From positions 1-25,445 of the IMG/VR virus record IMGVR_UViG_3300008267_000827: a stretch of 25,445 nucleotides of DNA. One strand, 5' to 3'. This document shows, one piece after another, positions 21,424 to 21,495 of the stretch (positions are counted from its first letter, which is position 1; every line of letters starts with the position of its first letter). Below the pieces are notes generated by a model, which made no database searches, had not been told where the DNA came from, and saw only the letters and a program-made list of their open reading frames with translations. The position numbers and the translations under genes are program-made. Source of the stretch: a virus.

Positions 21424-21495
21424 TTACTTATTCATTACATACATTGTAACTTCAAAGCCAAATCTCATTTCTGTAACAGCTGGTTTTGTCCACAT
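21424..21495 (-). CDS. pqqA: PqqA, precursor peptide of pyrroloquinoline quinone
   Basis: A 23-codon gene read base by base: it starts [10 protein letters not shown] at 21495, continues R-F-GFEVTMY and ends VMNK before TAA at 21424-21426. It has every PqqA hallmark: W-x-K-P near the start, R at 11, G at 13 and the essential pair E15 and Y19 within EVTMY, the residues joined by PqqE and turned into PQQ. The length is standard (23-24) and the wording is very close to PqqA of methylotrophic Betaproteobacteria. A ribosome site AAGGA lies 7 bp upstream, and a promoter-like sequence lies at 21536-21566. No pqqB-E is nearby, so host enzymes would process the peptide. It is a lone minus-strand gene between rightward genes. 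Confidence 0.92.
   Translation of the reverse strand: [23 protein letters not shown]

What the first reader, a model, noticed from the sequence alone, without database searches (positions are those of the whole stretch)
21424..21495. Phage-encoded PqqA: a 23-residue cofactor precursor as an auxiliary metabolic gene
The minus-strand peptide has all PqqA hallmarks, including the E-V-T-x-Y pair (E15, Y19) that PqqE crosslinks to form PQQ, W-x-K-P at the start, R11, G13 and a 23-residue length, plus a well-placed AAGGA site. PqqA is the substrate for PQQ, cofactor of methanol dehydrogenase, and its supply can limit PQQ. No pqqB, C, D or E is visible, so the phage would feed host enzymes and so keep methanol oxidation running in infection. 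It is so short that standard gene callers would miss it.
Basis: partly seen in the sequence, partly recalled or inferred. Interest (0 to 1): 0.93.

Follow-up and report, generated by a model that had tools for sequence, protein, structure and literature searches.

The report
Phages carrying the PQQ precursor peptide
This virus of methanol-eating bacteria carries a 23-residue gene for the peptide that its host turns into the cofactor PQQ, and the same overlooked gene occurs in at least five unrelated groups of phages of such bacteria, which suggests that phages top up the raw material of methanol oxidation during infection.

Summary
Window 21424-21495 (-) encodes [23 protein letters not shown], which passes the curated PqqA cut-offs (TIGR02107 46.5 bits against 20; Pfam 43.8 against 21.1). 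Of 85 contigs chosen by neighbouring genes, not by pqqA, all 85 keep an intact 23-codon pqqA with E15 and Y19; pN/pS is about 0.12 and variation sits at third codon positions. PqqA occurs in every Methylophilales phage isolate found in the collection searched (Venkman, P19250A, MEP301, MEP401/402, Melnitz): five unrelated lineages whose shared factor is the host. It is unannotated or called on the wrong strand in all of them. No pqqE, C or D, PQQ dehydrogenase or integrase was found in the phage records searched. Host Methylophilaceae make PQQ and carry up to 12 pqqA copies; PqqA supply is reported as rate-determining in one relative. Best explanation: a substrate-supplying auxiliary metabolic gene that feeds host PqqBCDE. 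Expression and effect are untested. Phage PqqA is not wholly new: one Lake Baikal contig was reported in 2020, in a paper that says P19250A lacks such genes; it carries an unannotated pqqA. New are generality, fixation in this lineage, and the systematic annotation miss.

The parts
21424..21495 (-). pqqA: 23-codon gene for the PQQ precursor peptide (E15 and Y19 are the residues that PqqE cross-links)
   Evidence: Translation; PF08042 and TIGR02107 above curated cut-offs; purifying selection in relatives
21503..21507 (-). Shine-Dalgarno AAGGA, 7 nt before the ATG
   Evidence: Sequence; an SD-like motif is present in 85/85 neighbour-chosen relatives and 115/115 motif-chosen copies
21389..21416 (-). 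terminator-like hairpin downstream of pqqA, overlapping the end of the convergent ssb gene
   Evidence: 12-pair stem; fold -22.4 kcal/mol, z -5.5; similar hairpin visible in many relatives
21539..21566 (-). possible sigma-70 promoter TTGACT-16-TACTAT (weak; not better than chance)
   Evidence: Consensus scan; 43% of shuffles score as high
21179..21406 (+). convergent single-strand DNA-binding protein gene (context)
   Evidence: phrog_18154, E 6.5e-16
20371..20973 (+). YqaJ/RecE-like exonuclease gene (context; bait for the neighbour-chosen test)
   Evidence: phrog_149, E 1.1e-42; bait
21610..21954 (+). divergent gene of unknown function, 114 aa (context)
   Evidence: ORF; no PHROG or Pfam match
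21951..22325 (+). endolysin/lytic transglycosylase-like gene (context; second bait)
   Evidence: phrog_938; annotated as lytic transglycosylase in MW202481; bait

Best explanation
The gene is a genuine, selectively maintained phage pqqA acting as an auxiliary metabolic gene that supplies a substrate, not an enzyme. During infection of a Methylophilaceae host (probably Ca. Methylopumilus/LD28 or OM43-like) the phage makes PqqA. Host PqqD and PqqE bind it and join E15 to Y19, and host protease, PqqB and PqqC complete PQQ. PQQ then loads newly made XoxF/MxaF methanol dehydrogenase, so that methanol still yields energy and carbon for virions. One PqqA is consumed per PQQ and must be translated anew, whereas host PqqBCDE are reusable; hence the phage needs to bring only this one short gene. 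Shown here: the gene, its identity, its conservation, its link to methylotroph hosts, and the absence of pqqE/C/D. Inferred: expression, processing by host enzymes, and benefit to the phage.
For: Family cut-offs passed. Neighbour-chosen relatives: 85/85 intact, variability by codon position 0.032/0.027/0.191, flanks much less conserved than codon positions 1 and 2. Motif-chosen set of 126 phage copies: E15 and Y19 in all, and the scan leaving E15/Y19 free returned no locus beyond those already found. pN/pS on codons not fixed by the pattern 0.187, p 1e-28. Present in five unrelated phage lineages with methylotroph hosts. The closest terminase relatives include SAR11 pelagiphages, and no pelagiphage appears among PqqA hits. 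Hosts make PQQ and 141/150 carry two or more pqqA copies. Published: 3-12 pqqA but one pqqBCDE in Methylophilaceae (PMC4109929); PqqA availability rate-determining in Methylovorus MP688 (cited in PMC11317620); xoxF the top transcript in OM43 (PMC5120137).
Against: No expression or biochemical data. The promoter is not above chance. Presence is variable in the Melnitz-like and MEP402-like lineages, with empty sites in close relatives, so it is not essential to every methylophage; some of those records are fragments. Hosts already carry several copies, so the gain may be small. The window phage's own host is inferred, not shown.
Confidence: 0.8

Rival explanations
1. The phage peptide is a decoy: it occupies host PqqD/PqqE and lowers or diverts PQQ synthesis.
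For: A surplus substrate can saturate enzymes; no experiment separates the two.
Against: A decoy would be free to lose E15 or Y19, yet both are invariant in 126 motif-chosen and 85 neighbour-chosen contigs, with 18 synonymous and 0 replacing changes at these two codons. Many phage peptides are identical to the host peptide.
Confidence: 0.05
2. The peptide or PQQ serves another role in infection: lanthanide capture or uptake for XoxF, redox protection, or PQQ release that helps other cells.
For: Orphan pqqA copies respond to lanthanide source in Methylorubrum extorquens and a link to lanthanide uptake has been proposed (PMC11317620).
Against: No specific evidence in phages; it still depends on PqqA being a substrate, and XoxF/MxaF supply is the simpler reading.
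Confidence: 0.1
3. It is an attachment or recombination site copied from a host pqqA, not a working gene.
For: Host pqqA is multi-copy and dispersed, a possible homology target.
Against: No tyrosine integrase in 32 records including the isolates checked. The window differs from its nearest host copy at 7 of 69 nt, mostly at synonymous sites. SD and the whole reading frame are kept. Locations and orientations differ among phage groups.
Confidence: 0.02
4. It is a passive hitch-hiker or host contamination with no function in the phage.
For: Clean presence/absence at one site in Melnitz-like phages.
Against: Fixed in 85/85 contigs of the window lineage with strong purifying selection; five unrelated lineages, including cultured isolates.
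Confidence: 0.03

Closest known systems
PqqA (Pfam PF08042, TIGR02107), precursor of pyrroloquinoline quinone
   Same: Length, E15/Y19 pair, leader region and family score; the commonest phage peptide equals a Methylophilaceae PqqA letter for letter
   Different: Lies in phage genomes without pqqE, C or D; often has T or S at position 4 in the window lineage
Orphan extra pqqA copies of Methylophilaceae (3-12 per genome; PMC4109929)
   Same: Stand-alone short gene away from pqqBCDE, presumably raising PqqA supply
   Different: Viral, with its own history: the window copy is 7 nt from the nearest host copy found and uses AGA for R11, not seen in the host copies compared
Lake Baikal T4-like contig VP_266 with PqqA and methanol dehydrogenase (PMC7678222)
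   Same: Phage pqqA predicted to support methanol oxidation in Methylophilaceae
   Different: That contig also carries methanol dehydrogenase; none was found in 47 PqqA-phage records here. The same paper states that P19250A has none of these genes, but it has an unannotated pqqA
Photosynthesis genes such as psbA in cyanophages (from general knowledge)
   Different: Here the phage supplies a cofactor precursor peptide, not a protein of the energy machinery

Membership tests
PqqA (PF08042/TIGR02107) | Score above curated family cut-offs | tested here: met
   43.8 against 21.1 bits; 46.5 against 20 bits
PqqA (PF08042/TIGR02107) | Glu and Tyr separated by three residues (E-x-x-x-Y), the PqqE cross-link pair | tested here: met
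   E15, Y19; invariant in 126 and 85 phage contigs
PqqA (PF08042/TIGR02107) | Short ORF of about 22-29 residues with a ribosome-binding site | tested here: met
   23 residues, AAGGA at 7 nt
PqqA (PF08042/TIGR02107) | Substrate of PqqE/PqqD | not testable with these tools
   Needs biochemistry
PqqA (PF08042/TIGR02107) | Next to pqqBCDE (usual, not required: orphan copies are common) | tested here: not met
   No pqqE, C or D in the window or relatives; pqqC model checked on hosts; pqqB not searched
Phage auxiliary metabolic gene | Host-like metabolic gene in a genuine phage genome | tested here: met
   Phage hallmark genes; cultured phages carry it; host-identical peptides
Phage auxiliary metabolic gene | Kept by selection in phages | tested here: met
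   pN/pS 0.117 in a set chosen without the motif
Phage auxiliary metabolic gene | Expressed in infection and changes host metabolism | not testable with these tools
   No transcriptome, proteome or assay available

The most novel reading that the evidence does not exclude
A single 23-codon gene is a hallmark cargo of phages of methylotrophic Methylophilaceae, gained independently by at least five unrelated phage lineages, and works as a substrate-only auxiliary metabolic gene: phages relieve PqqA limitation and so sustain methanol oxidation in infected freshwater and marine methylotrophs.
Probability: 0.6. Interest if true: 0.78.

Novelty: new member of a known kind. Interest (0 to 1): 0.68.

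Why it matters
Methylophilaceae such as OM43 and Ca. Methylopumilus link plankton-derived methanol to CO2. If their phages commonly bring the one PQQ component consumed at each synthesis, infection would sustain methanol oxidation rather than let it decay. The gene is so short that annotation missed it or called the antisense frame in every phage isolate examined, so surveys of viral metabolic genes undercount it, and a statement in print that P19250A lacks such genes is wrong. Since several of these phages and hosts are in culture, the question is directly testable. It also offers a host marker: a PqqA of this type suggests a methylotroph host.

Tried and rejected
Chance ORF: rejected by family scores and codon-level selection. 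Antisense 'hypothetical protein' as the real gene (annotated so in MW202481 and Melnitz): rejected, since variation fits the pqqA frame (pN/pS 0.08, against 1.8 and 3.4 in two antisense frames and 0.23 in the third). Other-host phages: the 'Acinetobacter phage MD-2021a' hit inspected is bacterial chromosome carrying pqqBCDE beside pqqA. Distinct promoter: the upstream match is no better than chance across 28 lineage representatives. Bias check: the motif patterns fix several residues, so selection was recomputed on free codons and on a set chosen by neighbouring genes. The first E15/Y19-free pattern was mis-spaced and found one irrelevant contig. The search for related loci refuses so short a query. 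Rfam found nothing in the window. Neighbour tests with MEP402 and Melnitz genes showed variable presence. PMC11360552 (global ocean viral metabolic genes) could not be read because of the paper cap, and subscription papers such as the P19250A description are not in the library, so earlier mentions may exist.

Full report
Observation. The minus strand of 21424-21495 reads [23 protein letters not shown], with AAGGA 7 nt before the ATG. It passes the curated cut-offs of Pfam PqqA and of the NCBI equivalog model for PqqA. The gene stands alone between a convergent ssb gene and a divergent gene of unknown function, next to an Erf/exonuclease module and an endolysin-like gene. The record is a 25,445-base virus contig with head, portal and terminase genes. 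Its nearest GenBank relative is podovirus ctXG6705 from Manatee Spring (73% of the window at 93% identity), with pqqA at the same place, where the annotators called an antisense 'hypothetical protein'.

Distribution among named phages. A protein search of 50,697 phage records finds PqqA only in Methylophilales/Methylophilaceae phages and ctXG6705. The only other hits are two 'Acinetobacter phage MD-2021a' records; the one inspected is bacterial chromosome with pqqBCDE beside pqqA. A Methylobacterium-type query adds nothing. The hits are Venkman, P19250A, MEP301, MEP401, MEP402 and four Melnitz isolates; in all of them pqqA is unannotated or lies under a 'hypothetical protein' call, antisense in the Melnitz record inspected. 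The terminases of the window, MEP301, MEP402 and P19250A share no meaningful BLAST similarity and Melnitz is T4-like (PMC9004378), so at least five unrelated phage lineages hold the gene. Close terminase relatives of the window and MEP301 lineages include SAR11 pelagiphages, and MEP402's include vibriophages; none of these appears among the PqqA hits. The shared factor is the host. Other named methylophages exist but were not seen in the collection, so 'all methylophages' is not claimed.

Metagenomic phages and selection. With named phages and the window this makes 126 copies in 29 nucleotide clusters; counts include two extra rows, an Acinetobacter contaminant and a duplicate of the window. 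E15 and Y19 are invariant. On codons not fixed by the pattern pN/pS is 0.187 (p 1e-28), and at E15 and Y19 there are 18 synonymous and no replacing changes. To avoid motif bias, loci were fetched by two neighbouring genes. After removing repeats of the same contig, 85/85 with enough sequence carry an intact ATG-to-stop 23-codon pqqA, all with E15 and Y19, even where the exonuclease is only 26-33% identical. pN/pS is 0.117 (p 7e-14); variability at codon positions 1, 2, 3 is 0.032, 0.027, 0.191. Flanks are less conserved (majority fraction 0.63 and 0.71) than codon positions 1 and 2 (0.97, 0.98). The binomial tests treat pairs as independent and are approximate.

Not universal. In Melnitz-like phages the gene sits as a compact cassette beside a tRNA-Leu gene; close relatives have the empty site. 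In MEP402-like phages it is sometimes at another place and often not found. Many of these records are fragments.

Hosts. The commonest phage peptide is identical to the commonest Methylophilaceae PqqA in the set, yet the window's DNA is 7 nt from the nearest host copy, mostly synonymous, and uses AGA for R11 where the compared hosts use CGT/CGC. PqqA is in 149/150 Methylophilaceae genomes, two or more copies in 141, up to 12; pqqE in 12/12; pqqC in 3/3. No pqqE (47 records; one weak radical-SAM match below cut-off), pqqC or pqqD (32 records), PQQ alcohol dehydrogenase (47 records) or tyrosine integrase (32 records) was found in the phages; pqqB was not searched.

Mechanism. PqqE joins Glu and Tyr of PqqA held by PqqD (PMC10906245). 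Methylophilaceae amplify pqqA but not pqqBCDE (PMC4109929); PqqA availability is reported as rate-determining in Methylovorus MP688 (as cited in PMC11317620); xoxF is the top OM43 transcript (PMC5120137). A phage that adds PqqA would therefore relieve the step most likely to limit PQQ. Identity, conservation and host link are shown; expression, processing and benefit are inferred.

Prior work. Phage PqqA was reported once in a T4-like Lake Baikal contig alongside methanol dehydrogenase, with the statement that P19250A lacks such genes (PMC7678222); P19250A carries an unannotated pqqA. A 2026 reservoir study lists viral pqqA among phosphorus genes (PMC13188868). Searches of the papers on Melnitz, MEP401/402, Venkman and MEP301 for PQQ terms found no phage pqqA (Melnitz mentions PQQ only in its growth medium). 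The contribution here is generality, fixation in one lineage, host tracking and the annotation miss.

Noticed in passing
window 7992-9949: The portal gene is split into two frames (9515-9949 and 7992-9491) near a T6 run at about 9501-9506; a sequencing or assembly error is likely.
   Followed up: no
window 22677-23980: Glycosyltransferase-like gene next to an FkbM-type methyltransferase gene (PF05050), a possible glycan-modifying pair.
   Followed up: partly
L006 2996-3066 and L430-L436: In Melnitz-like T4 phages pqqA is a compact insert beside tRNA-Leu; relatives with a 99-100% identical neighbour protein have the empty site, a natural with/without comparison.
   Followed up: partly
L007 (CAKLQF020000010), CAKLQH020000055: Records named 'Acinetobacter phage MD-2021a' contain bacterial chromosome (L007 shows pqqBCDE, ppk, fur).
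   Followed up: partly
L183 and G001 (Methylophilales bacterium LSUCC0135): Twelve pqqA copies, an extreme case of host pqqA amplification.
   Followed up: no
L280-L285, upstream of pqqA: Repeated TTACATACAAA-like units directly upstream of pqqA in some relatives of the window; possible regulatory repeats.
   Followed up: no
L347 (IMGVR_UViG_3300001850_000230): Most divergent PqqA of the window lineage, MWTTPAATEIRLGMEITAYVMNR, still keeps E15 and Y19.
   Followed up: partly
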